Part shown: piece after piece, positions 5,437 to 29,124 of the stretch
How positions within the stretch are numbered: position 1 is the stretch's first letter
How the letters are laid out: every line of letters starts with the position of its first letter
Notes under the pieces: generated by a model
What the model was told of the DNA's origin: nothing
Databases searched by the model: none
The model's input: the letters and a program-made list of their open reading frames with translations, nothing else
Position numbers and translations under genes: made by a program
NCBI GenBank assembly: GCA_017442315.1
Contig: JAFRZX010000010.1
Span: forward strand, 1 to 34,734
Reading direction: 5' to 3'
DNA from: Bacteroidales bacterium
Lineage (GTDB): Bacteria; Bacteroidota; Bacteroidia; Bacteroidales; UBA932
DNA: 34,734 nucleotides

Positions 5437-8127
5437 TTAATTCATGTTCATCAATGAATACTGATGAACCACATTTCCGAACACATCAATACGGACATGC
5501 ACTCCATCAATGCGTCCTTCTGCTGCTCCGTATCTGAACATACGGCCTCTATCACTGACAGCAACAGATTCACACTCCGTCGGATACACCATCTTACCGT
5601 CACAAGACCATATACCGAATCTGTCATCCTTCCCCACTTTTACATAGCCATCCGAGGACACAGAAACCGAATCATATTCTATCGGGACAACAACTTTCCC
5701 GACTTTATCTATTACTCCCCATTTCCCTCCTGAAGATACACAGGCGACACCGAATTCCGGATCGAAATCCATGACCTTGTCATATTGCATCGGTATTACA
5801 AACTCACCATATCTGTCTATATAACCATACTTCCCATTATGGGAGAGATAAGCCAGGCCGCCTGAAAAAGATCCTCCGTCCTCATACATCGGCACTGCAA
5901 TCCAATCACCATCCAGAGACACAAACCCAAGTCTGTCCTTTATCGTAACCAACGCAAAGCCTTCCGAGAAATTCTCCACCTCGTCAGAGAAAGGTGCCAC
6001 TATAAGTTCTCCATTTTTGTCAATGAATCCGAATCTGTCCTTTACCTTTATGCGCGCCATTCCTCCTACATATTCTCTTATCTCTTCATATTCCATCGGA
6101 ACTACCAGCTCCCCATTCTTATCGTAGCAACCATACTGACCGTATTTTTTTACAATTATAAGGTCCTCACCCATCTTGCCGACATAATCATAATCCATAG
6201 GAACAATCTGCTTTCCCTGAGAATCAAGTACTCCATACCTTCCCTCACTAGAAACCATCACATAAGAGGGATTGTCCATGTATTCCATGAAGTCATATTT
6301 TGCTTCAATAGTAAATTCACCGCTACGGTTGACCAGACCATATTTTCCCAGATGTCTTACTATCAGGTATTCCCCTGTGAAATTCCCGAACTCCCAGCCA
6401 TAGGCATTGCAGATCTGATCCGAACCTGCCATAGCCGTGTTATCCAGCCATCTTCCACGGGCATCCACAAGCCCGCACCCGCCAAGTTCACCTCCGCCCC
6501 AATCGTCCCATTCACAGCAAAGATGTACACCGAAATCATCCCCAAGTTCCTCCAATACATGGAAAGGATAATATTCAGGTCCGATACCCTTGCCTTTCCG
6601 ATACGAGGTCTTGGCATAAAGAAGATGGTCTTTGCATGCTATTCCTGAAAAATATGCGTAGGAAAAGGGATGAGAGAACTCCTGAAGCCTTTCGCCTCTT
6701 TTGTTCAACTGCACTATCAAAGGAGAGGAATCCCCTTTAGCAGCAGCTTTTCTGGAACCACATATATATATGTAGCTGTCAGTCTCATCGATATCATAGA
6801 ATTCCTCCCCATATGATGGAACGAATGTCCAGTCCTGACTGCCAGACCTGTCATAACGTACCAGAGGATTCTTCTCATTGAATGACAGCATCTTTGCAGA
6901 ACACTCATACCTGCCTCCGAATAAAGACTTCCAGACACGTACTGATGCATTTGCTGCCATGTCATCAGGATATTCTATACCATATTTATCAACGTCTTCA
7001 ACAGCAAGACCAAATGAAGAATCATATGAAGATTGCTCACAATCTGTCTTTTTACGCATAGCAACAGCTATTTCCTCCTCACGGGCTTCATGATTGGCCT
7101 CCAGCTTTAAAGTCTTTGACCATTCCGGAATTTCTTTAGTCGTATTGTATCCAAGTTCATTCTCCAGAAGCATCGTATAAAGTCCGAAAGGAACCGGAAT
7201 GTCAGCACGGTCACTTACAGCCGTAAACACACCTTCATCATAAATCTTGAAGGTCTTTTTCCCTAAAGAAGGAATGTCCTCAAATTTAGGACACACGAGT
7301 TCTGTCATATCTAAAGACACTGCTCCATATCTGTCACCCTGCCTGATCACATAATATCTGCCTGAAATAGCTTCGGTTATCTCATCGTATACACATGGCG
7401 TCACATATTGTCCAAAAACAGTAACCACTCCATATTTCCCATTCTGGACAGCCAGATACAGGTCAGGTCTACCGTTACTGCCAGTCCTTAGCAGTTCAAG
7501 AGGAACATCCCATTTGAGCGCAAGAAGATCCGAACCGTCTTTAAGGATTCCCCAAAGACCGTCCTTATATACGAGCTCGACCCCATTTCTACGGTCAAGC
7601 ATCCTTATTTCATCATATTGAGGATCTATAATGGTACTGCCGTCATGAGCTATCGTTCCGCACTTACCATCCTTGAATGCCCTATAGCCATAATCGACAT
7701 AACACAATGAGTCATAATGAACCTTCTGTACAAACCTTCCCTTACGGTCTATCAGGCCATATTTTGTGTTTTCCATTACAATAGCAAGGCTATCTGAAGA
7801 AAAATATTCCAGACCATCATAGACCGGCAAGATCACGAACAAGCCGGAATTACTGATAGTTCCCCATTGACCATTGAACTTCACTCGCGCTACACTACCC
7901 TCATAAGGACAAACAGCATCGAATATAGGCTTGACTACAAACTTTCCCTCTGAATCGGCATATCCCCATTTACCTTTCTTGTGCTGAAGAGGCGATATCT
8001 TTAATGTCAGGTCTTTACCTTTGATTTCTTTAAGATTCGGCAGGTCTTCCGGAATCTGCGCTTGCGCATTGCGACAGATTCCGAAAGCTATCACTGTCAA
8101 ACTTATTATAAATGAGAATCTTTTCAT
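5437..8127 (-). CDS. WG-repeat protein, exported
   Basis: An 896-residue protein with a signal peptide (cleavage likely after the AQAQ near residue 24) and many WG beta-hairpin repeats of the form (W/Y/F)G-x-hydrophobic-(D/N)-x-x-G. I count about fifteen: roughly seven in residues 50-270 and eight in residues 600-880, e.g. WGYADSEGKF, YGLVNRSGEF, FGFIDKNGEL, YGYIDRYGEF and WGVIDKVGKV. The middle (about 300-590) is a non-repeat region that I do not recognise. WG-repeat proteins are common in gut Bacteroidetes, usually without known function, and likely mediate binding. This is the last gene of the 16-gene leftward block, starting 26 bases after the BACON gene. Confidence 0.85.
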   Translation of the reverse strand: MKRFSFIISLTVIAFGICRNAQAQIPEDLPNLKEIKGKDLTLKISPLQHKKGKWGYADSEGKFVVKPIFDAVCPYEGSVARVKFNGQWGTISNSGLFVILPVYDGLEYFSSDSLAIVMENTKYGLIDRKGRFVQKVHYDSLCYVDYGYRAFKDGKCGTIAHDGSTIIDPQYDEIRMLDRRNGVELVYKDGLWGILKDGSDLLALKWDVPLELLRTGSNGRPDLYLAVQNGKYGVVTVFGQYVTPCVYDEITEAISGRYYVIRQGDRYGAVSLDMTELVCPKFEDIPSLGKKTFKIYDEGVFTAVSDRADIPVPFGLYTMLLENELGYNTTKEIPEWSKTLKLEANHEAREEEIAVAMRKKTDCEQSSYDSSFGLAVEDVDKYGIEYPDDMAANASVRVWKSLFGGRYECSAKMLSFNEKNPLVRYDRSGSQDWTFVPSYGEEFYDIDETDSYIYICGSRKAAAKGDSSPLIVQLNKRGERLQEFSHPFSYAYFSGIACKDHLLYAKTSYRKGKGIGPEYYPFHVLEELGDDFGVHLCCEWDDWGGGELGGCGLVDARGRWLDNTAMAGSDQICNAYGWEFGNFTGEYLIVRHLGKYGLVNRSGEFTIEAKYDFMEYMDNPSYVMVSSEGRYGVLDSQGKQIVPMDYDYVGKMGEDLIIVKKYGQYGCYDKNGELVVPMEYEEIREYVGGMARIKVKDRFGFIDKNGELIVAPFSDEVENFSEGFALVTIKDRLGFVSLDGDWIAVPMYEDGGSFSGGLAYLSHNGKYGYIDRYGEFVIPMQYDKVMDFDPEFGVACVSSGGKWGVIDKVGKVVVPIEYDSVSVSSDGYVKVGKDDRFGIWSCDGKMVYPTECESVAVSDRGRMFRYGAAEGRIDGVHVRIDVFGNVVHQYSLMNMN

Positions 8128-8153
8128 TTATCAAATTCATTTTATCCGATGAC

Positions 8154-11100
8154 TTACCTACCCGTGTCACCAACCTGAACAACCTTTATATTTAGAGACA
8201 GCTCTGATCCATCAGTTGTCGATACCTTTATTTCCCCATCCCTTTCCGGTGTCACAGTTCCTTCTGCAGCATCAGCCGGCAACTTATTGGAATCTACCTT
8301 TATCTTTAACTTCTGTTCTGATTCTTTAGTTACAGAAAAGAAAGTTCCCTTGGATACCTTAGCTTCCCAACTTCCGGTACATGTGACATTTACCGTATAT
8401 TCATCTCCCTGAACTGGCACGTTAAGCTGAGATGGACTCACACTGAATATATAACCCTTCTGAGATACAGTAACAGTCTTGGTGAAGGCAGGATTATCCG
8501 TACTTGTAAAGGTTATCTTGCCGGAACGGGCAGATGAATCCTTGTTCAGAGAAGCCTTGACCTTTACAGTTCTGTTGCCGGAACCATACTCTGTATCAAC
8601 AGTCAGGAACTTCCTGGCATCTGTATCAAAAACAGCCTTCCAGCCACCGGTACATGTGACATCAACTGTAAACTCTTCACCAAGAACATTTGCTTCTTTC
8701 TCTACAGGTTCAGCGTCCCAGACATAACCATCCTGAGATACGGTAACAATCTTGGTAAAGTCAGAATTGTCGGTACTTTCAAACATGATCTTGCCGGAAC
8801 GGGCTGATGACTCCTTGTTCAGAGAAGCTGTGACCTTTACAGTTCTGTTGCCGGAACCGGACTGAGGATCTACACTCAGGAATTTCTGAGCATCTGAATC
8901 AAGCCCAGCCTTCCAGCCACCGGTACATGTGACATCAACTATAAACTCTTCACCAAGAACATTTGCTTCTTTCTCTACAGGTGTAGCGTCCCAGACATAA
9001 CCATCCTGAGATACAGTAACAGTCTTGGTAAAGGCAGGATTATCGGTACTTGTAAAGGTTATCTTGCCGGAACGGGCTGATGACTCCTTGTTCAGAGAAG
9101 CCTTGACCTTTACAGCTCTGTTGCCGGAACCGGACTGAGGATCTACACTCAGGAATTTCTGAGCATCTGAATCAAGCTCAGCAGTCCAGCCACCGGTACA
9201 TGTGACACCTATATCAAAGGTTTCCCCTAAAGTTGCAACTGTCTTGCTATCCTTATCAACAACAAAGACATAACCTGCCTGAGACACCGTCACAATCCTC
9301 TTTAACTCAGGATTATCCGTACTGCTTACAGTCACATTTCCACTTCTTTGTCCAGCCTCTTTATTAAGATCGATATCAAATTCCAAACTATCATCCCCGG
9401 ATCCAGAATTTTTACCAACCGTTATGAACTGCTGGGCATCCGCATCAAGCTCCACTTTCCAATTGCCGGAGCACTTTACATCGAAGCCAAATTTTTGTGC
9501 AGTTGCGTCAAATTGATCCGAAGGAATGCCATCAAGACCAAATACATATTCTTTCTGAGATAGACTTACAGTCCTTTCTAATTCTGAAGGGTCTGTAGTA
9601 ACCAGCTTTATGCTTCCTTTTCTAACCTGTGGCTGATAGTTAGGATGGACTGTAACAAAGACAGACCCATTTCCTTCTCCGGACATCGGTACAATGTCAA
9701 GATACTGCTTCACAGCGTCATCAAGCTCTACGGCCCATGATCCGGTACAAGTAATCGGAATAGTGAAGCTGTCTCCCAAAACCGCACATTCTTCAGACCT
9801 TACGTCAACCTTGAATTCGTATGCTTTTTGAGCTATCGGTATTTCCTGTGTCTTGTTCTTGTCATCATTACTTGTAATGACAACTTTCACATTTCTTTCC
9901 GACTCCTTATAGTTCTCTGGTACTGTAAAGCTTAGGGTCTCCTCTATATCACGTCCACCTTGACCCTCAGTATCAGAGAGTCCAACCGGAAATTCCTTTA
10001 CTTCATTTCCTATAACAGCAGCTGTCCACTTACCGCTGCACTTGAACTTCATTTCATAGCTGTCTGTCTTCAATGCATCATGACTTATTGATTCAGGGCA
10101 TGAGACAATCTCCCATACGAAGTCTTTCTGATTTACAGATATTTTCTTTGTATGTTCAACGCCACCTACATTGCTATACACTTCAAACGAGCCACTGCGC
10201 ACTCCACCTGTATTATGTTCAGAACCAACCCTCACACTCACCTTGCCATCACTTCCGCTTCCACTCATCTTATCAATTCTGATCCAATCAGGTTTATTCC
10301 TGACATTCCACGGGCCGAGACAGTCAATGTCTAACGTTCTATCTGTATCATCCAACTCTCCGAACTCAGTCAAAAGAACAGGAGTGCTATCAAACCTATA
10401 TGCACCCTGCGAAACACTGAATGTAACAGACTTATCTACAATAGTGCTACTTACTGTAACAGTTGCTTGGCGTGGCTCTAAATTACCGTTATTTTTCAGA
10501 CTAAACGATGGTGATGCGCTTCCATAGCCACCGGCAGCACTCAAATCAACCCAATTTTCCGATTTGGAGATTTCCCACATGGCACCTGGGGTACAATCAA
10601 TCTTGAATGACTGCGAATCTGTCTCCAAGGCACCTAACTTATATTCAGGATTCGTTTTGACATCAAAGACAAAGGCATCCTGAGTTACAGTAATCGTTTT
10701 GTCTTCACCTTCATGGTTGGGATCTTCAGGAAGTGTCATTTCAGATTTATAGCTCCTGATGACTATATCTCCCGTTCTTTCCTGATTCCAAGGCGTTTCA
10801 ATCATTGTCCCGTCATTGTCCTTAAAAGTGACGGTTATATTTACTTTACCCTCTGTCCCATCACCTGCAGCCACACTGACCTCATCCACCCATTCAGGTG
10901 CTGAAAAAACTCTCCAAGGAGCTCCGCAATCTATAGTAAACTCATATTCATCAGATTTATATGCAGGAATATTTTTCTCAAATACAGAATCATCTATATC
11001 AAAGCAATATACTTTTTGCGTAATACTGAAGTTCTTCCTTGCTTCTGCTACATTCTTTCCATCATGAAGGTCACTGGTAATGGTAACAGTCATAGTACGC

Positions 11101-12926
11101 GGATGTTCTTTATCCTCATTAGGATTGATGGCATTCATTACTATTTCGTGTGTTCCTGCGCCTCCGTTCAGCACGCCTTCATCATCTGCCATAACAACTG
11201 CTCCGTCCGACATATAAGATGCAAAACCAACATTCAACCAATCATCGTCAGCATCCGTAGAAGACATCTTCAATGTCCAGGGACCAGATGATTCAAACCT
11301 GATATTATGAGGTTTTGTATCCAATCTGGAAATCTCAATGCCGTTTTCCAGATCATACCTGTCATCCTTAATTTGAAATATGAACGGCTTCTGAGTAAAT
11401 TTCGGATGCAGATCATCGGAAATACCTGGATCATTCGCCTTGAAATCGGTTGACAAAGTCAGGACCGCCTCGTTTTCCTTGAAATTAAGATTCTGCTTCG
11501 GCGCCATCAGATCTATATCCGATGTTCCATGACCGGAATCGTTATATTCGAGCCAATCCTTATTACCATCATCTATCTTCCACGGACCTTTTGTCCTGAC
11601 CTTCACAGTCTTTTTATCATTATCACTGCACAGATTTGGAAAAGATCTATCTGAGTTATAATCAATCAGTTCCAACTCATAAAGGTTCTGCGAATAATCC
11701 AGACATATGGTATCCACAGGCTCATTACCGACACTCAAAGGCAACATAAGAGACTTTCCTGTAGGAACAGGATCAGAAACTGCATCCTGAGGCAATTTAT
11801 TCACATTAGGCCTTGGCACTACAAGACGCATCTTTTTTCTGACACATTGTCTATCTAGCTGGTGAGTGGTATCACTCTGCAACAGGTCTTTATATGGCAA
11901 TTCCTCATTTCCCTCGCATATCAATTCATCTCCATCAGCCAATCCATCCCAATCATTATCACTAAACTGTACCTTGTCCTTCTCGTAGACGATATAGAAA
12001 TACTGCTCTCCAGGATATGTGTCAGCAGTACTATGGTCAGTCAGATAATCATACCCAAGTTCACTGAACGGTTTTTTGAGTATATATATATCCGTGGCTT
12101 CCTCTTTCAGTTCACATCCTTCCATGCCTTCCAGATAAAAAAGAAGGAAATCCTGACGCACATCAATAGTCCTTGTCAAAGCATGAGATACAGATTCATC
12201 AAGTTCCATATCCTTCCCATCAAGCCCTACCTTTCGCGGACGGATAGTGATTTTCGCCGGGAACACCTGATTATTAAGATTATGGTCTTCAGCAGACAGT
12301 CTGAACGACAGTATATCAGGGACATCTCCAAGCAATCCGTATTTCTCAGATAAGACAGGTTTACCATCTTCCTCCAGCAGATAACGCTGTTCTTCACTAT
12401 TTTCACCGCTGAAGTCTATTTCCCAATGAATATTTGATTCAACTTCAAATATTGCCCCTTTATCACTGCCGGACTTCATCCAATCAAAAGTGACATATGT
12501 CGTTGAGTCTGTCCTATAATCACTAGCATCTGATATCCTGACATCAAGCACAGCAGCATGCTGAGTAACTTTGAATTTATCTATTTCGTCTCCCTGTCTG
12601 CTGCAGAAAACGACATGTGTAGAATCAGACTCACCATCAAGGTTCGGCTTTACAGTAACTGTTATGGCAGTAGTTCCAGCCTTACCTTTCTCCGGCTTTA
12701 CCGTCAACCAGTTATCCTTGTTGTCCAGACCGTCATAGTCTATCTCCCAATCATACCGGGAAGTATAGGACAGAACCATTTCATCTCCCAGAGGATGTAC
12801 AGTCACATCCTCAACAGGGAGCAACGTAGGCAGTTCACTTTCATGCACAGCCATCTGACTATCCTTGTCACATCCGAAAAAAAAGACACCGGCAATCACG
12901 CCGACCAACAGATTTCTGAACTTCAT
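8154..12926 (-). CDS. Giant BACON-domain lipoprotein, ~14 repeats
   Basis: I place the start at ATG 12926, giving 1590 residues. This start begins directly with a lipoprotein signal (MKFRNLLVGVI, lipobox Phe-Phe-Gly-Cys, Cys19) and leaves a 22-base gap to the permease gene; the in-frame ATG at 12962 would add 12 charged residues and overlap that gene. The acidic and lysine residues just after Cys19 (DKD) resemble a Bacteroidetes surface-export signal. I count about 14 Ig-like units of about 90 residues, each with a (C/S)xGxW core and an SQxxY-like end, typical of BACON (carbohydrate- or mucin-binding-associated) domains. The last few units are nearly identical. It is probably a long cell-surface stalk or adhesin. 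It sits directly downstream of an ABC permease/ATPase pair, suggesting a functional link. Confidence 0.85.
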   Translation of the reverse strand: MKFRNLLVGVIAGVFFFGCDKDSQMAVHESELPTLLPVEDVTVHPLGDEMVLSYTSRYDWEIDYDGLDNKDNWLTVKPEKGKAGTTAITVTVKPNLDGESDSTHVVFCSRQGDEIDKFKVTQHAAVLDVRISDASDYRTDSTTYVTFDWMKSGSDKGAIFEVESNIHWEIDFSGENSEEQRYLLEEDGKPVLSEKYGLLGDVPDILSFRLSAEDHNLNNQVFPAKITIRPRKVGLDGKDMELDESVSHALTRTIDVRQDFLLFYLEGMEGCELKEEATDIYILKKPFSELGYDYLTDHSTADTYPGEQYFYIVYEKDKVQFSDNDWDGLADGDELICEGNEELPYKDLLQSDTTHQLDRQCVRKKMRLVVPRPNVNKLPQDAVSDPVPTGKSLMLPLSVGNEPVDTICLDYSQNLYELELIDYNSDRSFPNLCSDNDKKTVKVRTKGPWKIDDGNKDWLEYNDSGHGTSDIDLMAPKQNLNFKENEAVLTLSTDFKANDPGISDDLHPKFTQKPFIFQIKDDRYDLENGIEISRLDTKPHNIRFESSGPWTLKMSSTDADDDWLNVGFASYMSDGAVVMADDEGVLNGGAGTHEIVMNAINPNEDKEHPRTMTVTITSDLHDGKNVAEARKNFSITQKVYCFDIDDSVFEKNIPAYKSDEYEFTIDCGAPWRVFSAPEWVDEVSVAAGDGTEGKVNITVTFKDNDGTMIETPWNQERTGDIVIRSYKSEMTLPEDPNHEGEDKTITVTQDAFVFDVKTNPEYKLGALETDSQSFKIDCTPGAMWEISKSENWVDLSAAGGYGSASPSFSLKNNGNLEPRQATVTVSSTIVDKSVTFSVSQGAYRFDSTPVLLTEFGELDDTDRTLDIDCLGPWNVRNKPDWIRIDKMSGSGSDGKVSVRVGSEHNTGGVRSGSFEVYSNVGGVEHTKKISVNQKDFVWEIVSCPESISHDALKTDSYEMKFKCSGKWTAAVIGNEVKEFPVGLSDTEGQGGRDIEETLSFTVPENYKESERNVKVVITSNDDKNKTQEIPIAQKAYEFKVDVRSEECAVLGDSFTIPITCTGSWAVELDDAVKQYLDIVPMSGEGNGSVFVTVHPNYQPQVRKGSIKLVTTDPSELERTVSLSQKEYVFGLDGIPSDQFDATAQKFGFDVKCSGNWKVELDADAQQFITVGKNSGSGDDSLEFDIDLNKEAGQRSGNVTVSSTDNPELKRIVTVSQAGYVFVVDKDSKTVATLGETFDIGVTCTGGWTAELDSDAQKFLSVDPQSGSGNRAVKVKASLNKESSARSGKITFTSTDNPAFTKTVTVSQDGYVWDATPVEKEANVLGEEFIVDVTCTGGWKAGLDSDAQKFLSVDPQSGSGNRTVKVTASLNKESSARSGKIMFESTDNSDFTKIVTVSQDGYVWDAEPVEKEANVLGEEFTVDVTCTGGWKAVFDTDARKFLTVDTEYGSGNRTVKVKASLNKDSSARSGKITFTSTDNPAFTKTVTVSQKGYIFSVSPSQLNVPVQGDEYTVNVTCTGSWEAKVSKGTFFSVTKESEQKLKIKVDSNKLPADAAEGTVTPERDGEIKVSTTDGSELSLNIKVVQVGDTGR
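8461..9279 (-). repeat. Three tandem 273-bp repeat units inside the BACON gene
   Basis: The same landmarks recur at an exact 273-bp period. The TGAGA(T/C)AC start lies at 8461, 8734, 9007 and 9280, and the CAGCCACCGGTACATGTGAC block at 8641, 8914 and 9187. Each unit encodes 91 residues, one BACON-like domain. Adjacent copies are nearly identical at DNA level over long stretches, so they are recent duplications and could change copy number by recombination. Confidence 0.9.
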
Positions 12927-18420: not shown

Positions 18421-19145
18421 AGAGGGTAGTTCACTGTCATTACCAATTTTGTCATTCTGTTTTCAGAATCATATTCGATTTCATCATGGATTGTCACTGA
18501 TTCCCACTGCCTGAACATTACCTTGGAACAAAACTCATCAATCTTTACCAAAGACGCATCTTCCGGCTTAGCACCATTCAAGACAAATTTGCAGGACGGA
18601 GCAATACGATGACTGAAACCTTTTGGTGTAGCATCATATGTCTGTTCTATATTTATTATACGATGCAGTTCTTCCTTAGTAATACGCTCATACATTGCAA
18701 CCTTCACAAAGCCACTGACTGGAATCAGTTCTGAAAAATCTCCTGTCACCACATTCTGAGCACAGAGATAATAGGTCTGCGACACTGATGAAGGGACATT
18801 GTTGAAGCTGCCTGTACCATTGGAAGCAATCTGTTTTGTACACTCTGAATCGCTGAAAAGAATATATTCCAACGAATCACCGCTTTCCACTGCAGCATAA
18901 GCCTTGAAACTGTACTTTCCGTCACTTCCACGCGAAGGAGCAGATATGTCTTCCGCCAAAAGAACCGGCACAGTAGACAATGGCACAATTTCCTCTACCG
19001 GAGCTTCTGCCAATGGTTCCGGTTCCGTATATTCAACCTTATCAAAAGTCCTGTCTGAAAGGAATATTCCCCCAAGGAAATATCCGACTGCCGCAAACAC
19101 AGCAAACTCAAGGCACACTGATACTATTTTCAAACCTTTACTCAT
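18417..19145 (-). CDS. Single-pass, mostly periplasmic protein of unknown function
   Basis: I take ATG 19145 (242 residues). It starts MSKGLKIV, leaves four bases after the upstream stop, and places one TM segment (about residues 11-31) near the N-terminus. The longer frame from 19211 would add 22 residues overlapping the neighbouring gene without benefit. After the TM comes a Glu/Pro-rich linker (EPEPLAEAP) and a roughly 180-residue periplasmic region with an Ig-like feel but no family that I can name. The topology (short cytoplasmic tail, periplasmic domain) fits an inner-membrane component linking to periplasmic partners. Confidence 0.75.
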   Translation of the reverse strand: MSKGLKIVSVCLEFAVFAAVGYFLGGIFLSDRTFDKVEYTEPEPLAEAPVEEIVPLSTVPVLLAEDISAPSRGSDGKYSFKAYAAVESGDSLEYILFSDSECTKQIASNGTGSFNNVPSSVSQTYYLCAQNVVTGDFSELIPVSGFVKVAMYERITKEELHRIINIEQTYDATPKGFSHRIAPSCKFVLNGAKPEDASLVKIDEFCSKVMFRQWESVTIHDEIEYDSENRMTKLVMTVNYPL

Positions 19146-20713: not shown

Positions 20714-21853
20714 CTATACAAATAAATTCAACACTACACCTACAGCCAGACCTGCAACAGCACTGAGCACCCATACCCAGGGAGACATAGGTTTTTCTGC
20801 TTCTGATGTCGAAACATAAGAAAAATCACGTACCGTATGACCATCTTCTTTCTTTGCAGATTCTGTCTCTACCGGAGACACATCATTTTTTACAGAAGAT
20901 GAATCCGTGAAGGCAACAGTTTCCGTCAGCGGTTTCCTGACCGGCTTTTCTTCCTTTACCTGCTCCACCGGTTTCTGTTCATCCTTTTTATCTTCCTGAA
21001 CGGGAGCTGATCCATCCTTTATCCATGGCATCCTTGGAGATGCTTCTCCTTCAAGTATCCGAGATGCAAATTCTGCAAGCTGCTGGGCAGTAGGACGATT
21101 CCACGGCTCTTTAGCCATACACGCCTGGCAGACAACATTCAATGTGTCGGAATACTCCTCAGGAAGCTCCGGCATGTCAGCACCCTGTTTCAGAAGACTT
21201 CCTCCCATACCACAGAACGGAAGTTCATTTGTGACAAGTTCGAATATCGATGCTCCCAAAGACCATATGTCACTTGCTTTCACTGCATGATACTGCTTGC
21301 TGAATCTTTCGGGTCCCATATATGAGATTGCACCTGCCGAACTCATGGCATTAGCTGTCTTGCGCAAAGTTGCCCGAAGCTGCTTGCTGATACCGAAGTC
21401 GGTAATCACGAAATCCCCGGACTTAAGTATAAGTATGTTATCCGGCTTGATGTCCTGATGGATGATAGGAGGCTGCATGGAATGAAGATAGGCCAGTCCT
21501 GAAGCCACATCACGTATAAAACGCCAAAGATCTGTCTCGCTCATTTCACCGGCATATTTTGATACCGAACCGTCCGGACAGAACGGCATTACCAGATAAG
21601 GCCTCTGGTCTTCTGCATTGACACCAAGGTAATTAGCGTGAAGCAGGTTTGTATGATTCAACTCAAATGAGATCTTAAACTCATCCTTAAACTCCTTGAG
21701 GCCTTTCTCATCCATGGAGACATAGACCTTGATTGCAACTTCAATATCAGTTGCAGCATCAACGGCAACCCAGACCTCACCGAAAGTTCCGCTTCCAATA
21801 AAGCGTTCTAATCTGTAACGTCCATCAAGAAGATATCCTTCCGAATATTTCAT
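20714..21853 (-). CDS. Tail-anchored Ser/Thr protein kinase
   Basis: A 379-residue Hanks-type kinase. Visible motifs are the glycine loop GSGTFGEVW (20-28), ATP lysine K42, the catalytic loop HQDIKPDN (132-139), DFG (152-154) and GPER (180-183). The usual HRD arginine is replaced by Gln (HQD), so activation may not depend on a phosphorylated activation loop, but Asp134, Lys136 and Asn139 are kept and activity is expected. After the domain comes a 75-residue Pro/Glu/Lys-rich linker with Thr-Val motifs (T312, T340), then a C-terminal TM helix (about 357-379) that anchors the kinase in the inner membrane. It lies 76 bases after the PP2C gene, its likely antagonist. Confidence 0.93.
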   Translation of the reverse strand: MKYSEGYLLDGRYRLERFIGSGTFGEVWVAVDAATDIEVAIKVYVSMDEKGLKEFKDEFKISFELNHTNLLHANYLGVNAEDQRPYLVMPFCPDGSVSKYAGEMSETDLWRFIRDVASGLAYLHSMQPPIIHQDIKPDNILILKSGDFVITDFGISKQLRATLRKTANAMSSAGAISYMGPERFSKQYHAVKASDIWSLGASIFELVTNELPFCGMGGSLLKQGADMPELPEEYSDTLNVVCQACMAKEPWNRPTAQQLAEFASRILEGEASPRMPWIKDGSAPVQEDKKDEQKPVEQVKEEKPVRKPLTETVAFTDSSSVKNDVSPVETESAKKEDGHTVRDFSYVSTSEAEKPMSPWVWVLSAVAGLAVGVVLNLFV

Positions 21854-21929: not shown

Positions 21930-22988
21930 TCATTTGATATCGTCATTCTGCAAAAACACATCAAAGATATTCTTGTCAATCCGTACATGGCCGGCATCAT
22001 CCAGCACAATCACATCCAGACAGATTGCAGCCACAAGCAGAGCAATACATATCAGCAGGATGATGAGCAGAGCCAATAATATCTTGCGATTGCGCTTCTT
22101 CCTGTCCTTCTTAGCAGACTCATGAGGCAGCAGGGTGCTTGTCAGTTCCTTTTCATGCATAGCTCCGCATTCAAGAAGGGCAATCGTGACATTATCATAT
22201 GCACCAGCATCAAAGGCTGCGTTGAAAAGCGCAATTCTATAATCTTCTATACTATCATATTGCTGCATGAGGACATTCAGTATCTCCTCATCGCGCACAA
22301 GGCCGCAAAGTCCGTCCGTACATAACAGGATATAATCTCCTGCTGACAGTCGTTTGCACACATAATCCGGCTGGGCCTTGGTAGCCGAATCACCTAAACT
22401 TCTTGTAATTATGTTGCTGTTAGGATGATCAAATGCCAGTTCCGGATCCAGTTGACCGGAATCCACCAGACTCTGGACATAAGAATGATCCTTGCTCAAC
22501 CTGCTCAGAGCTCCTGCCTGACGGTTGAAAAGATAGGCTCTGGAATCACCGCACCAAGCGACATGTACCACATTGCCTATTATCCAAGCCACAACGATGG
22601 TAGTACCCATCCCGGACGTGGAAGCGTCCTCCTTCACCTTCTTCTTGATCTGCTCGTCAGCATCCACAATGCTTTTCTTGAGGAAAGCCTCTATATGATT
22701 GCTGCTGTCAATTATCTTGGAAAAATCTGTAATATTGGAAAAACTATCCTTGATACCGTTGACAGCCAGTTCCGACGCTACTTCGCCGGCATTCATGCCA
22801 CCCATTCCGTCAGCTACAACCATGACGCAGCCATATTCCCCCATATCCATAGGTTCATTGGGACTTGATGGCACAAACCAGTTGTCCTGCTTCGACAGGT
22901 CTGGGTTGACTATGAAATTGTCTTCATTATTGGTCCGGACCAAACCCACATTGGTCGCAACTGTCATTTTGAAGGTAATGTCAGACAT
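21930..22988 (-). CDS. PP2C-family protein phosphatase with C-terminal TM helix
   Basis: A 352-residue metal-dependent Ser/Thr phosphatase that would reverse the action of the two kinases. PP2C motifs are complete: NNEDNF with E22-D23, VADGMGG (58-64), SGMGTT, CGDSRAY (146-152), DHS, TDGL with D225, and YDNVT with D265-N266, giving all metal ligands. After the domain come a basic stretch (about 293-302) and one TM helix (about 302-328), with a short acidic tail outside. The topology puts the catalytic domain in the cytoplasm at the inner membrane, alongside the tail-anchored kinase. A GC-rich hairpin lies in the 78-base gap upstream. Confidence 0.94.
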   Translation of the reverse strand: MSDITFKMTVATNVGLVRTNNEDNFIVNPDLSKQDNWFVPSSPNEPMDMGEYGCVMVVADGMGGMNAGEVASELAVNGIKDSFSNITDFSKIIDSSNHIEAFLKKSIVDADEQIKKKVKEDASTSGMGTTIVVAWIIGNVVHVAWCGDSRAYLFNRQAGALSRLSKDHSYVQSLVDSGQLDPELAFDHPNSNIITRSLGDSATKAQPDYVCKRLSAGDYILLCTDGLCGLVRDEEILNVLMQQYDSIEDYRIALFNAAFDAGAYDNVTIALLECGAMHEKELTSTLLPHESAKKDRKKRNRKILLALLIILLICIALLVAAICLDVIVLDDAGHVRIDKNIFDVFLQNDDIK

Positions 22989-23522: not shown

Positions 23523-24521
23523 TTAAAATTTCTTCAATTTAGGTTTCTGCTCAGTAGAAAGTGTTGGCTTCTCTTTTGTGTTGCGGTTGATGAGACTGTT
23601 GAGCGAAGATTTCTTTGCTTCCTCTGCTGCCTTTGCCTCTTCCTCCTTTCTAGCCTCTTCTTCCTTGAGCTGCTGTTCAAGACCTTCGATCTTGCTCTGC
23701 GCAGCCTCTACATTCTGGCCAGCCTGAGCTGCAACATCCGCTGCATTCTGAAGTTCATCACGAAGAGCTGCCGCACTTTCAAGAAGCGCTTCACGCTCTG
23801 CCTGAGCTGCATTAAGCTTCTGCTGTATACGCATGCGCTCTGCAGCAGACTCTGCCTGAGTGTTCACAAGTTCATCGTTAAGAGCATTGATGAGTTCATC
23901 GCTTGCAGAAAGATCCTGCTGAACCTGATCTATAAGTTCCTGCTTAGCTTCAAGTTCCTGAGTGAACTGCTGCTGAGAATAAAGATTCCATGCCACAAGT
24001 CCGCCAACTGCAAGAACAAGAATAAGGGCCATGATCCACATTGCACGCTTGTAAGGGCGGAGAGCCTGCTGACGGAAAAGATTGAGACGCTCTGTCATTC
24101 CAATGCTGCTTACAAGGCTCTGCTTGCCCTGAGGAACGATGAATCCCATAAGCGGTCCTCTTGAAGAAAGACGTATCTCATCTCCTGAATTCAGAATCTT
24201 CTCAGATGTGATGACCTGACCGTTTACAATTGTAGAATTGGTCTGTGAAAGCGGAACAAGTTTCCAGTTTTCACCTTCCTTTACGATTGCCGCATGACGA
24301 CGGCTTACAGTCTCGAACGACTCATCAAAACGTACCTGACAAGAAGAATCACGGCCAAGTTCCACCTGATCCACGATTATCTTCTGCGACTCTCCGGCAT
24401 GATGATACAAAGACTCTGTCTTATGCTCCAGAATGTAGTACTGACGTCCAGAAGCATTGAATACTGCAGCCATTCCAGCACCGACTGAACCAGCTACGGT
24501 TCTTTTGTAATTTGCCTCCAT
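23523..24521 (-). CDS. FHA-domain protein with TM helix and long coiled coil
   Basis: A 332-residue protein. The N-terminal FHA domain (about 45-130) has the phosphothreonine-binding residues in LGRD (55-58), SRRH (73-76) and the VNG turn (99-101). One TM helix (about 160-180) follows, then an Ala/Glu/Gln-rich coiled coil (about 183-300) and a basic tail. The topology puts the phosphopeptide reader in the cytoplasm and a coil perhaps 15 nm long in the periplasm, so it could carry a phospho-signal across the inner membrane. The extreme N-terminus has a Thr-Val motif (T8 in KRTVAG) like those in the zinc-ribbon protein, a candidate phosphosite. It follows the FHA-kinase gene by 42 bases. Confidence 0.9.
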   Translation of the reverse strand: MEANYKRTVAGSVGAGMAAVFNASGRQYYILEHKTESLYHHAGESQKIIVDQVELGRDSSCQVRFDESFETVSRRHAAIVKEGENWKLVPLSQTNSTIVNGQVITSEKILNSGDEIRLSSRGPLMGFIVPQGKQSLVSSIGMTERLNLFRQQALRPYKRAMWIMALILVLAVGGLVAWNLYSQQQFTQELEAKQELIDQVQQDLSASDELINALNDELVNTQAESAAERMRIQQKLNAAQAEREALLESAAALRDELQNAADVAAQAGQNVEAAQSKIEGLEQQLKEEEARKEEEAKAAEEAKKSSLNSLINRNTKEKPTLSTEQKPKLKKF

Positions 24522-24563: not shown

Positions 24564-25889
24564 TTACAATTCAATCTTCAGCTTTACATCACCTATCGTG
24601 ATGATATCTCCGTTCTTGAGAAGTCTTCCATTCTGTGTAACGACATCCGAATTGACATAAGTTCCGTTCATGGAAGTCTTCCACATCATAGACTCTGAAT
24701 TCCACTGCCCGTCACGTATCTGCCAAAACGATTCTCCCAACATCTCAATCACGCAATGCCTACGTGAAACATATGACTCATCATAGTCCTCAATCACAAT
24801 GGCATTTGCTTCATCTCGTCCCACCCCAAGGACCTTTCTGCCATATCTTGTGATTATATCTTCAAGAAGATACTCCTTTCCGAACTCCTTACCCTGCATG
24901 ACTTTCAGTCTCTTGATTCCAGCCGGTTCTTGCTGCTTCACAGGATCCGGCTCAACCACCTTGGGTGTCACGGCCTTCGACGAATGGACCGGATCATTAT
25001 AATAAGGAAGCAAGGCCATCGCATCGCCGGCTGAATGAACTCTTTCCTTATGATCAGGAATAAGACATTTCGATATCAAATGTTCCCAATCCCTTCCATG
25101 AGGAGCCATCAACAGTCTCATCCTGTCCCAGTCACCAGCTTTTCCTCTTTTCTGATAATGAACCAGATCGTTCTGATCATCCAGTTTTCCAAAAGGGAGA
25201 TAACCTGTAATCAACTGATACATCATCACTCCGAAAGAATACAGGTCGGTAGTCGGGAGAACAGTGCTGTTGCCCCTTGCCGGATTGACCTGTTCCGGAG
25301 GCATATATGCATAGGTTCCGAATATCTGGGTCGGCTTTCCGAAAATGTTTCTTTCCGTCATTCTCTTATTACGGTCTCCGCTTATGCCGAAATCAGTAAG
25401 CACTGCCGTACCATCCTCCTTGAAAAGCACGTTCTCCGGTTTTAGGTCACGATGCACCTTACCATTGACATGAAGGTCATGAAGTCCGTTCAGGACGTCT
25501 CTGGCAATTCTGACAAGCGGGGCATCCTCTTTCCCTACAAACTTCACAAGATCACCACCTGCACAATATTCCATAACGATATACGGATTTCCCTTGACCA
25601 ATCCATAATCAACGGAATGCACCAGATTGCGGCTCTTTATGCAACTTGTCTTGTATTCCATCTCAAAACGGCTTATAAGAGGCTGGCGGATACTTGCAGG
25701 CACATCCCACAAACGAAGCAGTTTCATCGCCCAAGTATTCCCTCTGACATCCTTCACTTTATAAACGACGCCAAAAGAGCCTTCTCCCAATGCTTTTTCT
25801 ACGACATATCCACAAGCGACCTGATCACCGGGATTATAATCGCAACGTTCAGGAATAATATTGCTGCCTATGTGAGAAGATGTCAACAT
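24564..25889 (-). CDS. Ser/Thr protein kinase with C-terminal FHA domain
   Basis: A 441-residue soluble kinase. The kinase domain (about 25-300) has the glycine loop GEGSFGVVY (35-43), ATP lysine K56, HRDLKPEN (146-153), DFG (166-168) and PPEQ (197-200), all intact. A linker of about 50 residues leads to an FHA domain (about 353-441) with GRD (357-359), SRRH (375-378) and NGTYVN (408-413). Such fusions let a kinase bind phosphothreonine on a partner or on itself. No TM helix is visible, unlike the second kinase. The start codon overlaps the stop of the zinc-ribbon gene by seven bases, so the two products are translationally coupled and are likely partners. Confidence 0.95.
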   Translation of the reverse strand: MLTSSHIGSNIIPERCDYNPGDQVACGYVVEKALGEGSFGVVYKVKDVRGNTWAMKLLRLWDVPASIRQPLISRFEMEYKTSCIKSRNLVHSVDYGLVKGNPYIVMEYCAGGDLVKFVGKEDAPLVRIARDVLNGLHDLHVNGKVHRDLKPENVLFKEDGTAVLTDFGISGDRNKRMTERNIFGKPTQIFGTYAYMPPEQVNPARGNSTVLPTTDLYSFGVMMYQLITGYLPFGKLDDQNDLVHYQKRGKAGDWDRMRLLMAPHGRDWEHLISKCLIPDHKERVHSAGDAMALLPYYNDPVHSSKAVTPKVVEPDPVKQQEPAGIKRLKVMQGKEFGKEYLLEDIITRYGRKVLGVGRDEANAIVIEDYDESYVSRRHCVIEMLGESFWQIRDGQWNSESMMWKTSMNGTYVNSDVVTQNGRLLKNGDIITIGDVKLKIEL

Positions 25890-26671
25890 TTCTCAAAAAA
25901 ATAACGTACGCCATTAATCACCACCTCATGTCCCACATGCAGTTCTATCGGTGATTCCCCTGTAGAAGCAACAGGAACAAGTCTGAAATCTGCCTTATTT
26001 TCCGAAATCAGTTCTTCAGGGATATCCCTGACGGTTGCCTTAAGATCTGTCTTTGCAGTCTTATTCTCCGCATGAGGAACGATCCTTACGGTTGCGTTGA
26101 TAGGTTTCGGATCTTCTTTTTCATCCTCATCAGATGTTATCATAACAGTTGCGACTGTAGATTTCAAGGACCTGGATTCAGAAGATGGCTGTTCAACCGG
26201 CTGAACCACAGGTTGAGGCAACGGTTTTGCCGCAGTCTTCTTTATAGTTGCCCCGCAGTTCGGACAATATTCTGATCCTCCTGTTATAGGATAGCAGCAT
26301 TTAGGACATTGCACAGTCTCCGACAGGTCCGCTGTATCCAATACAGCGGAAGCATCCATGACTGTAGCTGTCAACTTTTTTCTCTGCTCGGAAGTTGGAA
26401 CAGCTGCAACAGGAGCAGCCCCGAAAGCTACTGTTGCATTGGATATCTCGCTCTTAGCTGGCTCTGGCTCACAAACAGGCTCTGGCTCATCTGACGGATC
26501 ATGCACAGATACCGGTTCTGCCACAGATACTGGTTCTGCCACAGGACTTGGATCAGGATCCGGAACGACAACAGGAGTTTCCGGTTCTATCTCAAAAGAA
26601 TCCTCTTCACATTTTTCACAACGTACAGCGGAATCAAGATTAAACCAACCGCAGTTATTACATCTCTTCAT
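25883..26671 (-). CDS. Double zinc-ribbon protein with repeated Thr-Val motifs
   Basis: A 262-residue cytoplasmic protein. Two CxxC-x10-CxxC zinc ribbons are visible: C4/C7/C18/C21 and C122/C125/C136/C139 (CPKCCYPITGGSEYCPNCG). The rest is low-complexity Pro/Glu/Val linker in which Thr-Val recurs seven times (T80, T103, T119, T172, T175, T194, T213), in contexts such as NATVAF, TATVMD, NATVRI and KATVRD. The last 35 residues form a compact segment that I do not recognise. It is directly coupled to the FHA-kinase gene. I infer it is a multisite substrate or scaffold whose phosphothreonines bind FHA domains; this has not been shown. Confidence 0.82.
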   Translation of the reverse strand: MKRCNNCGWFNLDSAVRCEKCEEDSFEIEPETPVVVPDPDPSPVAEPVSVAEPVSVHDPSDEPEPVCEPEPAKSEISNATVAFGAAPVAAVPTSEQRKKLTATVMDASAVLDTADLSETVQCPKCCYPITGGSEYCPNCGATIKKTAAKPLPQPVVQPVEQPSSESRSLKSTVATVMITSDEDEKEDPKPINATVRIVPHAENKTAKTDLKATVRDIPEELISENKADFRLVPVASTGESPIELHVGHEVVINGVRYFFEKC

Positions 26672-26682: not shown

Positions 26683-27852
26683 TTATCCGAAAATCATATC
26701 GAATACCTTTTCTGCCTTTACAGCACCATCCTCGGATTTCACTGTAATCTTTACCTTATGGTACTGTCCGTCCATGAATTCAGATACGTTGGTAAACCGT
26801 ATCACATATGAATTCTGCATAGCCTTGGTTACGGGAAGATTATCAAGAGAAACGCCTGTGAAATCTGATGATGCATACAATATGGTTCCACCGGTATATT
26901 CTGACATTCTCCATGGCTTTTCAAACTCATCAGGGACCTCTTCGAAATCAACATAGTCAATATCGCTATATACGGTATGTATAGTACCCTGACCTGTAGA
27001 CCAATTGCTTTGGGAGCTTACATATGTGACAGAAAAACCACTTTTGCCATGTGGAGAGTTCGGCTCGTCCGTAAAATTCACATAAATCCGGTTTGCTCCT
27101 GTCCTGAATGTGAAATTCTCATCTGCAAACCTAAGGGCTGCTGTCCCGCATTCAACCTGGCTGCTCAGATCATATGCACTCTTGGCAGCATACAAAGCAT
27201 CAGCATCATCTCCTGCAAATCCGAATGTGCGGTCAGTTCCGGAAGAACGGTTCAGATAATCACTCAGATTTTCATATGAAGTAAGATTCATTGCACCGGT
27301 TATCAATCCATTATATCCTACGCAACTGAATCTGACATCAAGATTGGTGTTCAGTTTTTGTGCCCATTGTATAATATCTCTTGCAATGGCATCAGCTTCA
27401 TCACCCATACTGCCTGAATTATCTACCAGAAATACAAAATCATTCTTGATATTCAGATTCCCTGACGCATCATCAATCGTGTTGTGTACAAGTATTCCTT
27501 TGGGCTTATCATCCACAGACACCCAAACGTTTTGAGGAACACCTGATTCCCCTCCCGTACCAATAAGCCTTATCCATTCATCTGTTTCAGGGTTCTGGAT
27601 ACCTGTCATGTCAATTCTTATAACGACATCATTCCCTTCCGTTTCTACCGAATACTGTACGTTAGGAATGGAAACAGTCGGATTTGATATGGATGGATTC
27701 GGTGTTGCCTGACTGTCGCTTGGTATACCTGTATTATTGATACCGCTTTCCAATACAATGGTACTCACACCATCTTTAAGGCAAGAACCAAACAATAAAG
27801 AAGCAAAAATCAAAACCAGACTCAGGGTCTTGGATTTAAAACATGGTATCAT
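26683..27852 (-). CDS. vWA-domain lipoprotein
   Basis: A 389-residue exported protein with a lipoprotein signal (LLFGSC, Cys24). After a Ser/Pro/Asn-rich linker and a beta-rich segment (about 65-130), a von Willebrand A domain begins near residue 137. It has a perfect MIDAS motif DNSGSMG (D144, S146, S148) and a later TDEPN that probably supplies the third metal-site loop. vWA domains bind protein ligands through a divalent metal. This is the second gene of the block, six bases after the OmpA-domain gene and 11 bases before the zinc-ribbon gene. It probably faces the periplasm or cell surface. Confidence 0.9.
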   Translation of the reverse strand: MIPCFKSKTLSLVLIFASLLFGSCLKDGVSTIVLESGINNTGIPSDSQATPNPSISNPTVSIPNVQYSVETEGNDVVIRIDMTGIQNPETDEWIRLIGTGGESGVPQNVWVSVDDKPKGILVHNTIDDASGNLNIKNDFVFLVDNSGSMGDEADAIARDIIQWAQKLNTNLDVRFSCVGYNGLITGAMNLTSYENLSDYLNRSSGTDRTFGFAGDDADALYAAKSAYDLSSQVECGTAALRFADENFTFRTGANRIYVNFTDEPNSPHGKSGFSVTYVSSQSNWSTGQGTIHTVYSDIDYVDFEEVPDEFEKPWRMSEYTGGTILYASSDFTGVSLDNLPVTKAMQNSYVIRFTNVSEFMDGQYHKVKITVKSEDGAVKAEKVFDMIFG

Positions 27853-27858
27853 ATCCGC

Positions 27859-29124
27859 TTATTTTAATATTTCAAATTCAACACGGCTGTTCATACGACG
27901 TCCCTCCTCTGTATCATTGGTCGTCAATGGCTTAGTCATACCATACCAGTTGTACGAAAGCTTCTCACTTGGCACTCCCTGCTCCTCCAGATACCTTACA
28001 ACTGCCAATGCCCTGTCTCTGGACAGACTCATATTAGACTCCGGACTTCCGGTATTATCTGTATGTCCCTTCACTTCAACTTTCAGGTCAGTCCTGATCA
28101 ACAACTGAGCAAGGCGGTTCAGATAATCATAAGATTCCACTCCAAGCAGACTCCTGCCTGTTTCAAAACTGACGGAATTGATCACACATATTGTCTTGCC
28201 GACAACCTTTTCTCCCCTGGAAATCATTTCCAGGACATCATCCAAAGTATAGCATGGCTTCCTCTCGACAGACGGCGCCACATAGATCCGCTGAACCTGA
28301 GTTGCAGTGTAACCTGATGGCTTACGTTTTTTGAATATACTCAATGGTATCCCGAAACTGGCTCTGACCTCTACACCGGAAAACTTACGTACACCGGCGA
28401 CAACAGCCCTTGTCCCATTTACACTTACAATATCTCCTTTACGTTCTTTTTTACTATAAGTGTCTGTAATTCCATACTCATATCCTGCTTCAAGGCCCAC
28501 ATAAAATGTCTTTTTGGCAATCTTGAACTGAAACTTTGCTCCAGCACCTACCGAAGCTGCAAAATATGCCGATGCCATATTTGCCTTTGACAGTTTCATT
28601 GCATAGTGCTCATATCCTGACATTGTGTATTCCTGAAGAGACAAGGTTCCTCCAGTCGAGAATCCAAGTACAGGAGCAACGAACACATATGGTCTTACCA
28701 ACGAACTCTCATCCAGGAAAGTATACATTACCGGAACACGCAGATCCACATATCCTGATTTCAGTCTGTATATACCCTGAGTAACATCTGAGACTCCATT
28801 AAAATACTGAGTTCCCCCTCTTCCCAGGAAAGTTACTTCCGGCCTTATGAAAAAATGTCTGTTTCTATCAAACGCATATTCAGCAAAAACAGAAAAGACC
28901 GCGCTATTTGAATTGTCTCTGTTAGTATACAGACCCTTATTAAGTCCACTGAAGCGCATGAAACCAGCATGATAGCCTGCTCCTATCCCGATATGCCATC
29001 TGTCCAAAGGATTTTCGTCAAGCTTGGTATAAGAGACTTCAGATTGCAGAAAATCATCTGTCTGTGCAATGGAGATCATGCACGAAAACAAAAGCACAAA
29101 TGTGCTAAGCACTGATTTATACAT
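27859..29124 (-). CDS. OmpA-family protein: beta-barrel plus peptidoglycan-binding domain
   Basis: A 421-residue outer-membrane protein and the first gene of the leftward block. A signal peptide (cleavage after SIAQ, about residue 21) leads to a barrel-like region (about 30-265) with alternating strands such as IGIGAGYHAGFMRF and VGLEAGYEYG. The C-terminal OmpA-like domain (about 310-421) has the peptidoglycan-binding signature VKGHTDNTGSPESNMSLSR and a conserved RMNSRVEFEI end. It would tether the outer membrane to the cell wall and may anchor the assembly encoded downstream. The predicted block promoter lies about 30 bases upstream. Confidence 0.92.
   Translation of the reverse strand: MYKSVLSTFVLLFSCMISIAQTDDFLQSEVSYTKLDENPLDRWHIGIGAGYHAGFMRFSGLNKGLYTNRDNSNSAVFSVFAEYAFDRNRHFFIRPEVTFLGRGGTQYFNGVSDVTQGIYRLKSGYVDLRVPVMYTFLDESSLVRPYVFVAPVLGFSTGGTLSLQEYTMSGYEHYAMKLSKANMASAYFAASVGAGAKFQFKIAKKTFYVGLEAGYEYGITDTYSKKERKGDIVSVNGTRAVVAGVRKFSGVEVRASFGIPLSIFKKRKPSGYTATQVQRIYVAPSVERKPCYTLDDVLEMISRGEKVVGKTICVINSVSFETGRSLLGVESYDYLNRLAQLLIRTDLKVEVKGHTDNTGSPESNMSLSRDRALAVVRYLEEQGVPSEKLSYNWYGMTKPLTTNDTEEGRRMNSRVEFEILK

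What the first reader, a model, noticed from the sequence alone, without database searches (positions are those of the whole stretch)
5437..29124. Sixteen-gene block linking cytoplasmic Thr-phosphorylation to an envelope apparatus
All 16 genes are on the minus strand with gaps of at most 78 bases and several 4-7 base overlaps. The products sort into two sets. The cytoplasmic set has a kinase-FHA, a tail-anchored kinase, a PP2C phosphatase, an FHA-TM-coil protein and a zinc-ribbon protein. The envelope set has an OmpA anchor, two vWA proteins, an outer-membrane barrel, a single-TM periplasmic protein, two small exported proteins, a MacB-like ABC pair, a giant BACON lipoprotein and a WG-repeat protein. 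Kinase-PP2C-FHA circuits are known to control T6SS (PpkA/PppA/Fha), and kinase-PP2C-vWA triads are known (TerY-P). This combination of complete phospho-circuit, exported vWA proteins and BACON stalk, with no T6SS core, is not one I can match to a named system. I infer a phospho-regulated surface adhesion or export machine.
Basis: partly seen in the sequence, partly recalled or inferred. Interest (0 to 1): 0.78.

Follow-up and report, generated by a model that had tools for sequence, protein, structure and literature searches.

The report
TssR-ABC envelope complex without T6SS
A gut Bacteroidales genome carries what looks like a phosphorylation-controlled cell-envelope machine built around relatives of the anchor proteins of a bacterial injection weapon, but joined to an ATP-driven transporter instead of the weapon, which may show where that anchor came from.

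Summary
The 16-gene minus-strand block is real. Its key is g12 (15424-17796), a full-length homologue of TssR, a T6SSiii membrane-complex protein. The 13 TssR-ABC genomes searched whole, this one included, lack TssK and TssN. In this block's clade six genes (g9-g14) occur together in 27 of 27 loci long enough. g10 is a probable TssP homologue (hhalign 52-62%; controls far lower), so TssP-TssR pairing may exist outside T6SS, although a 2024 paper reports no membrane-complex homologues there. T6SSiii TssRs lost the vWA metal site (0 of 16 against 41 of 45) and nest among ABC-linked TssRs in an outgroup-rooted tree (alternative not rejected, AU p 0.324). The kinase/PP2C/FHA cassette is separable: ten genomes have it without TssR, two of them beside T6SSiii tail genes. 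Best reading: a phospho-regulated, ATP-driven trans-envelope complex sharing ancestry with the T6SSiii membrane complex. Function is inferred.

The parts
27859..29124 (-). g1: outer-membrane barrel + OmpA peptidoglycan-binding domain
   Evidence: PF00691 5.7e-21, PF13568 1.6e-10; not seen in the five related loci reaching upstream of g3
26683..27852 (-). g2: lipoprotein with vWA domain, DNSGSM metal-site motif
   Evidence: PF00092 2e-4, just under its cut-off; lipobox FGSC at residue 24; motif read from the sequence
25883..26671 (-). g3: zinc-ribbon protein, cytoplasmic
   Evidence: PF13248 1.8e-5 and PF13240 2.8e-4, both under cut-off
24564..25889 (-). g4: Ser/Thr kinase-FHA
   Evidence: PF00069 7.7e-41, PF00498 2.2e-13
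23523..24521 (-). g5: FHA - TM - coiled coil
   Evidence: PF00498 3.5e-15; TM-like 158-176; 2020 proteins at E<=1e-3 of 7994 scored
23067..23489 (-). g6: small exported protein
   Evidence: signal-like N-terminus; no family over cut-off
21930..22988 (-). g7: PP2C phosphatase with C-terminal TM
   Evidence: PF00481 4.1e-14; TM-like 299-317
20714..21853 (-). g8: tail-anchored Ser/Thr kinase
   Evidence: PF00069 1.1e-45; TM-like 356-374
19150..20709 (-). g9: periplasmic domain + outer-membrane beta-barrel; core of this clade
   Evidence: AlphaFold pLDDT 89.8; Foldseek top rows are outer-membrane barrels, E from 2.6e-5, with low TM-scores over the whole model and OmpA/OprG best on the target side (0.53-0.61)
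18417..19145 (-). g10: bitopic inner-membrane protein, FN3-like + alpha/beta domain; probable TssP homologue; core of this clade
17815..18420 (-). g11: exported 201-aa protein; core of this clade
   Evidence: 27 of 27 loci long enough
15424..17796 (-). g12: TssR homologue with complete vWA metal-site motif
14535..15407 (-). g13: MacB/LolD-class ABC ATPase
   Evidence: PF00005 4.4e-22; MacB 5lil 9.8e-31, LolD about 1e-28, BceA 4e-28
12949..14538 (-). g14: FtsX/MacB-class permease, four TM-like segments, about 340 residues between the first two
   Evidence: PF02687 3.6e-8; TM scan
8154..12926 (-). g15: BACON-repeat protein, probable surface lipoprotein, candidate client
   Evidence: PF13004 1.4e-59, 8 stretches; N-terminus ...FFFGC read by eye (the lipobox pattern did not match)
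5437..8127 (-). g16: WG-repeat exported protein
   Evidence: PF14903 2.2e-76, 10 stretches
29158..29189 (-). candidate promoter of the block with a G9 tract against the -7 box

Best explanation
The block encodes a phosphorylation-controlled, ATP-driven complex that spans the cell envelope and shares ancestry with the T6SSiii membrane complex. Shown: TssR homology; a six-gene core in this clade (barrel g9, bitopic g10, g11, TssR g12, ABC ATPase g13, permease g14), of which TssR + ABC pair is the deep part; no TssK or TssN in the genomes searched; a separable kinase/PP2C/FHA module. Probable: g10 is a TssP homologue that anchors TssR to the inner membrane, as TssP does in T6SSiii. Inferred: Thr phosphorylation by g4/g8, reversed by PP2C g7 and read by the FHA domains of g5 and g4, switches the complex on; ATP hydrolysis by g13 drives movements of g14's large periplasmic part (mechanotransmission, as in MacB, LolCDE or FtsEX; recalled); TssR, through its metal-binding vWA domain, passes the movement to barrel g9 and so displays, retains or releases a giant surface protein (BACON protein g15 here; proteins with T9SS sorting tails in some relatives).
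For: TssR domains; a profile of 34 window-clade TssRs alone finds 15 of 16 T6SSiii TssRs at 61-124 bits and all 13 deeper loci at 105-312 bits. ABC pair in 39 of 43 non-T6SS TssR loci and 0 of 16 T6SSiii loci, confirmed in 12 of 13 deep loci with profiles built from this clade only. Six-gene core in 27 of 27 loci long enough. TssK and TssN absent from 13 of 13 TssR-ABC genomes. hhalign g10-TssP score 36.7-38.5, against at most 25.4 for 15 other gene families, 19.2 reversed and 18.3 in 60 column shuffles. Metal-site core intact in 41 of 45 non-T6SS and 0 of 16 T6SSiii TssRs. g13 nearest to MacB/LolD. T9SS-tailed proteins in some related loci. TssP binds only TssR in T6SSiii (PMC10781749, passage).
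Against: No experiment. hhalign 52-62% is below usual certainty, and falls to 20% with the last domain alone. g10 and g11 are not found in the 13 deeper loci, and g9 there only marginally (L061 43, L062 25 bits) once profiles are built from this clade alone. The giant surface proteins vary and are missing from some loci. ABC linkage could be shared regulation rather than a physical complex. Own genome is 88.6% complete. A kinase is absent from 10 of 12 deeper TssR-ABC loci, so phospho-control is not essential to the core.
Confidence: 0.5

Rival explanations
1. Decayed T6SSiii: a remnant cluster whose tail genes were lost and whose TssR/TssP survive with new neighbours.
For: TssR and a probable TssP homologue are shared. 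The AU test does not reject ABC-linked TssRs as one clade (p 0.324).
Against: TssR here keeps the metal-site motif that all 16 T6SSiii TssRs lack. The ABC pair is in every non-T6SS lineage sampled except L063 (a solo TssR in a genome that also has a TssR-ABC locus) and in no T6SSiii locus. The outgroup-rooted tree nests T6SSiii inside ABC-linked TssRs, with ABC-linked rows as one clade in 0% of 200 bootstrap trees.
Confidence: 0.08
2. A MacB/LolCDE-like transporter (lipoprotein or peptide export, or envelope-stress detoxification) whose core is the ABC pair; TssR, g10 and g11 are periplasmic adaptors and g9 the exit or receptor.
For: g13 is nearest to MacB, LolD and BceA; ATPase and permease are fused in L064, L065 and L067; barrel g9 in the core of this clade.
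Against: No MacA-like adaptor or TolC-like channel was recognised in the block; whether g9 is open is unsettled (best target-side fit is OmpA/OprG, but porins and FadL are also listed).
Confidence: 0.25
3. Loose neighbourhood: two independent systems (phospho cassette; TssR-ABC) that only share an operon.
For: Each module occurs without the other.
Against: Within this clade a kinase is present in 28 of 28 loci long enough, in varied gene orders, and kinase + PP2C recur in the deep loci L062 and L066 (an FHA protein also in L066).
Confidence: 0.15

Closest known systems
T6SSiii membrane complex TssNQOPR (Bacteroidota)
   Same: Full-length TssR homologue; probable TssP homologue two genes before it; envelope-spanning layout
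   Different: No TssN, TssO, TssQ, tail or baseplate found; ABC pair and outer-membrane barrel instead; vWA metal site intact; no lipobox-like motif in TssR (0 of 45, against 10 of 16 in T6SSiii)
MacB / LolCDE / FtsEX mechanotransmission ABC transporters
   Same: MacB/LolD-class ATPase; permease with FtsX domain and large periplasmic insert
   Different: Sits beside TssR; no MacA or TolC recognised
PpkA-PppA-Fha phospho-circuit of proteobacterial T6SS (recalled)
   Same: Kinase, PP2C and FHA proteins; two related cassettes lie beside T6SSiii tail genes
   Different: FHA protein is FHA-TM-coil (TagH model only 21.6 bits against a 120.25 cut-off); no T6SS found in this genome
Kinase-PP2C-vWA triads (eLife 2020 PMC7159879, passages seen; TerY-P recalled)
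   Same: Kinase, PP2C and vWA genes linked
   Different: Both vWA proteins here carry export signals

Membership tests
T6SSiii (whole system) | Tail/baseplate genes such as TssK | tested here: not met
   TssK profile absent from own genome (88.6% complete) and the other 12 TssR-ABC genomes searched; found in 3 of 4 T6SSiii control genomes, the miss being 65% complete
T6SSiii membrane complex | TssR | tested here: met
   Three Pfam TssR models, two over cut-off, PF20781 at 25.4 against 25.7; window-clade profile finds 15 of 16 T6SSiii TssRs at 61-124 bits
T6SSiii membrane complex | TssP | tested here: inconclusive
   Remote profile match g10, prob 52-62%, controls far lower
T6SSiii membrane complex | TssN (link to baseplate) | tested here: not met
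   0 of 13 TssR-ABC genomes (one 43-residue match with two stops at E 0.007 in G203 taken as chance), 7 of 7 control genomes
T6SSiii membrane complex | TssO and TssQ | tested here: not met
   0 of 43 non-T6SS loci; profiles came from the T6SSiii loci themselves and these small helical proteins diverge fast, so weaker evidence
MacB-type ABC transporter | MacB-class ATPase + FtsX-type permease with large periplasmic domain | tested here: met
MacAB-TolC | MacA adaptor and TolC channel in the block | tested here: not met
   No such family in the 16 genes (Pfam; NCBIfam on 10 of the 16); elsewhere in the genome not searched
T6SS TagH/Fha | TagH family score of g5 | tested here: not met
   21.6 bits against cut-off 120.25
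TerY-P triad | Cytoplasmic TerY-type vWA protein | not tested
   Both vWA proteins have export signals; TerY itself not compared

The most novel reading that the evidence does not exclude
TssR-ABC is a previously undescribed class of phospho-regulated, ATP-driven trans-envelope machine in Bacteroidota, and the source from which T6SSiii took its TssP-TssR membrane-complex part: the vWA metal site was lost and the ABC motor was replaced by TssN plus the contractile tail.
Probability: 0.4. Interest if true: 0.9.

Novelty: new variant of a known kind. Interest (0 to 1): 0.77.

Why it matters
The 2024 study that defined the T6SSiii membrane complex states in its abstract that no membrane-complex homologues were detected outside T6SS loci, and in its discussion that no independent locus encodes this set of genes, so its origin is hard to identify (PMC10781749; abstract and sections 6, 11 and 16 read). 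TssR, and probably TssP, in a conserved non-T6SS operon gives a concrete candidate relative of that ancestor and makes the question of how this weapon was assembled from older parts testable. It would also add an ATP-driven, Thr-phosphorylation-controlled envelope machine to gut Bacteroidales.

Tried and rejected
VipB (PF05943) as T6SS marker: 0 of 1 and 0 of 393 genomes; but four of those 393 genomes (G144, G308, G019, G239) carry T6SSiii genes, so this model does not detect Bacteroidota TssC. Both calls were set aside for TssK/TssN profiles. First hhalign with 5 TssPs: best match g10 at only 6.2%, on the TM segment; it rose with 16 TssPs. TssO, TssQ and TssN against all 16 genes: nothing above 8%. 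Single proteins from deep loci against g10, TssP and g11: at most 13.5%. PDB sequence search: nothing for TssR or g14. PADLOC (8 of the 16 proteins): only generic kinase, coiled-coil, zinc-finger and MotB-like matches. Rfam and tRNA: nothing. Profile search with g10: 8 hits.

Corrections made on checking. The g12 profile took in T6SSiii TssRs during iteration, so its 526-610 bits there are inflated; the clean figure is 61-124 bits for 15 of 16, none for L117, which is typed as TssR by weak matches and its place beside TssP. The same drift inflated the deep-locus g9 counts; the ABC pair survives the clean test (12 of 13 deep loci, lowest g14 score 56 bits in L105). TssP/O/Q profiles were built from the T6SSiii loci, so their 16, 15 and 16 of 16 there are by construction; only the 0 of 43 informs. 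Three of the 16 T6SSiii loci (L060, L109, L114) show only TssP/O/Q in the fetched stretch. In one search two of 18 'outgroup' rows (L090, L092) group with L117 and were mislabelled; one search left them out, with two further outgroup rows (L032, L101), 11 loci (near-copies and long branches) and one long L012 row: 63 rows (14 outgroup, 12 T6SSiii, 37 ABC-linked). Loci fetched but not counted because no full-length TssR was recognised: L071, L072, L116, L118, and vWA-only L031-L033. My ORF caller let opposite-strand ORFs mask some genes, so counts come from the six-frame table. g10 alignments and model begin two residues late. A phase-variable promoter was considered and stays a lead.

Papers: 7 searches answered; none of the listed titles and abstract starts describes TssR outside T6SS. 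Texts opened: PMC10781749 (abstract, sections 6, 11, 16, passages) and PMC7159879 (passages only). Mechanotransmission, the MIDAS motif, the Bacteroidota promoter consensus, TerY-P and PpkA/PppA/Fha are recalled.
Full report
OBSERVATION. The window (34734 bases) lies at C73:1-34734 of an unnamed Bacteroidales MAG: 2.8 Mb, 173 contigs, 88.6% complete. Sixteen ORFs run on the minus strand from 29124 to 5437. Gaps are at most 78 bases, with three overlaps of 4-7. The only TTTG-N19-21-TAnnTTTG match on the minus strand in or just before the block is at 29189-29158, 33 bases before gene 1. Plus-strand genes (the last at 3059-5383) converge on the block's end; CAAX-protease and UbiA-family genes lie upstream.

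THE KEY PROTEIN. g12 matches three TssR models: N-terminal barrel 1.7e-9, TssR_VWA 6.1e-12, TssR_C 1.8e-5 (the last just under its cut-off). 554 proteins reach E<=1e-3 among the 7995 candidates scored. A scan of the 84,980-species genome collection with a 34-row profile returned 32 loci: 29 Bacteroidales (L002-L030), all titled MAG or uncultured, and 3 vWA-only matches elsewhere. PF17643 was found in 16 of 393 genomes of the order at E<=1e-3, 11 over its cut-off. A 24-row TssR profile matched 50 of 392 genomes of the phylum, of which 13 besides the window's own have long, high-scoring matches (189 bits or more); most others are vWA-only. A profile of 34 window-clade TssRs alone finds 15 of 16 T6SSiii TssRs at 61-124 bits.

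TWO CONTEXTS. The ABC pair g13+g14 is in 39 of 43 non-T6SS loci (L002, L022 and L023 end at a contig edge; L063 is a true solo, in a genome that also holds the TssR-ABC locus L064) and in 0 of 16 T6SSiii loci. Profiles built from the block's clade alone still find the pair in 12 of 13 deep loci, at 56-329 bits for g14. TssP, TssO and TssQ are in 0 of the 43; their presence in the T6SSiii loci is partly by construction. The ABC context reaches beyond the order: L103, L104 (same class) and L105 (another class). In the block's clade g9-g14 are all present in 27 of 27 loci long enough, window included (in L012 the ABC pair is on the other strand); g10 and g11 are not found in the deep loci and g9 only marginally. 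TssK and TssN are absent from the 13 TssR-ABC genomes searched whole, while controls are positive in 3 of 4 and 7 of 7. The 29 genomes of L002-L030 were not searched whole.

DIRECTION OF EVOLUTION. The DxSxS-type metal-site core of vWA domains is intact in 41 of 45 non-T6SS TssRs and 0 of 16 T6SSiii TssRs; with the third-loop Asp, 40 of 45 against 0 of 16 (exceptions L103, L104, second copies in L012 and L020; L105 lacks the Asp). Since vWA domains in general carry this site (recalled), the T6SSiii form looks derived. T6SSiii TssR is one clade in the full-length tree (61 rows, SH-aLRT 96) and in the vWA-only tree (63 rows, 99/97). With outgroup vWA domains it nests inside ABC-linked TssRs, beside L105 and the block's own clade (93/83), the only non-T6SS clade in which a TssP-like g10 is seen. 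ABC-linked rows are one clade in 0% of 200 bootstrap trees, but the AU test does not reject that (p 0.324). So the direction is favoured, not proven.

THE PHOSPHO MODULE. In the block's clade at least one kinase is present in 28 of 28 loci long enough, PP2C in 26, FHA in 24. Kinase and PP2C also sit in two deep TssR-ABC loci, L062 and L066, and an FHA protein in L066. Yet the g5 family occurs in 11 of 393 genomes of the order at E<=1e-30, 10 of them without full-length TssR, in cassettes of kinase-FHA, FHA-TM-coil (mostly about 500 aa) and PP2C, usually with a zinc-ribbon protein (weak matches in some) and a further kinase. In two of those ten (G331, G247) the cassette lies convergently next to a T6SSiii tail cluster with TssK, G, F and H and, by eye, VgrG- and Hcp-like genes; no TssN or TssR was found in those genomes. 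So both halves of the block, TssR/TssP and the phospho-circuit, are found with T6SSiii elsewhere, in different genomes.

CLIENTS. The block ends with a 1590-aa BACON protein and an 896-aa WG-repeat protein. Related loci carry other large exported proteins near g9 or TssR, some with T9SS sorting tails (PF18962: L068 583 and 480 aa and L067 875 aa over the cut-off; L017 1576 aa just under it). This suggests a variable surface client, by association only.

MECHANISM. The ATPase is nearest to MacB and LolD, and the permease has four TM-like segments with about 340 residues between the first two, the layout of mechanotransmission transporters (recalled). I propose that Thr phosphorylation gates ATP-driven movement passed from g14 through TssR/g10 to barrel g9, controlling display, retention or release of a giant surface protein. 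Composition rests on conservation; the physical complex and all later steps are inferred.

KNOWN OR NEW. The 2024 paper searched 1253 complete Bacteroidota genomes and reported no complete membrane complex without other T6SS genes and, in its abstract, no homologues outside T6SS loci. It looked for a complete complex, and many loci here are in MAGs, which may explain the difference. My paper searches listed no description of TssR with an ABC transporter. It is not a T6SS (TssK, TssN absent) and no MacAB-TolC partner was recognised in the block; I rate it a new variant of known kinds of envelope machine, with the stronger reading kept as the novel case.

LIMITS.

Noticed in passing
window 29158-29189 (-); L002 about 1145-1177: Promoter TTTG-N20-TATATTTG with a G9 tract against the -7 box; L002 has G9 at the same place before its first block gene (ATTG-N21-TAACTTTA). 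In 588,551 bases of 29 loci only one other tract of 9 or more (L030) was seen, though a tract of 9 turns up in 21 of 200 shuffles of the window. Six promoters of the form TTTGGAAAAGT...TAnnTTTG in the genome, one without the G tract, plus one near-match. Candidate phase-variable promoter.
   Followed up: partly
L139/L141 (G331) and L140/L142 (G247): T6SSiii tail clusters with no TssN or TssR found in the genome, convergent with a kinase-PP2C-FHA-TM-coil cassette. The FHA-TM-coil protein might replace the usual membrane complex.
   Followed up: partly
L131-L138: Phospho cassettes (kinase-FHA, FHA-TM-coil mostly about 500 aa, PP2C, zinc ribbon, mostly a further kinase) with no full-length TssR or TssK in the genome; partners unknown.
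   Followed up: partly
L061, L062, L069; L012, L020, L002: Several TssR-family genes per locus (3 or more in L061, L062, L069; 2 in L012, L020, L002), some shortened.
   Followed up: no
L009:2994-4574: Protein with two FHA stretches and a trypsin-like protease domain inside a related locus.
   Followed up: no
L062:5507-7963: vWA protein fused to a PGAP1-like alpha/beta hydrolase, between the kinase and PP2C genes.
   Followed up: no
L063 (G156:C1): TssR gene with no ABC pair in the 20 kb fetched, in a genome that also has a TssR-ABC locus (L064).
   Followed up: no
window 32269-32959 (+): Two overlapping small genes that look like a HigB/HigA-type toxin-antitoxin pair (by eye, not tested).
   Followed up: no
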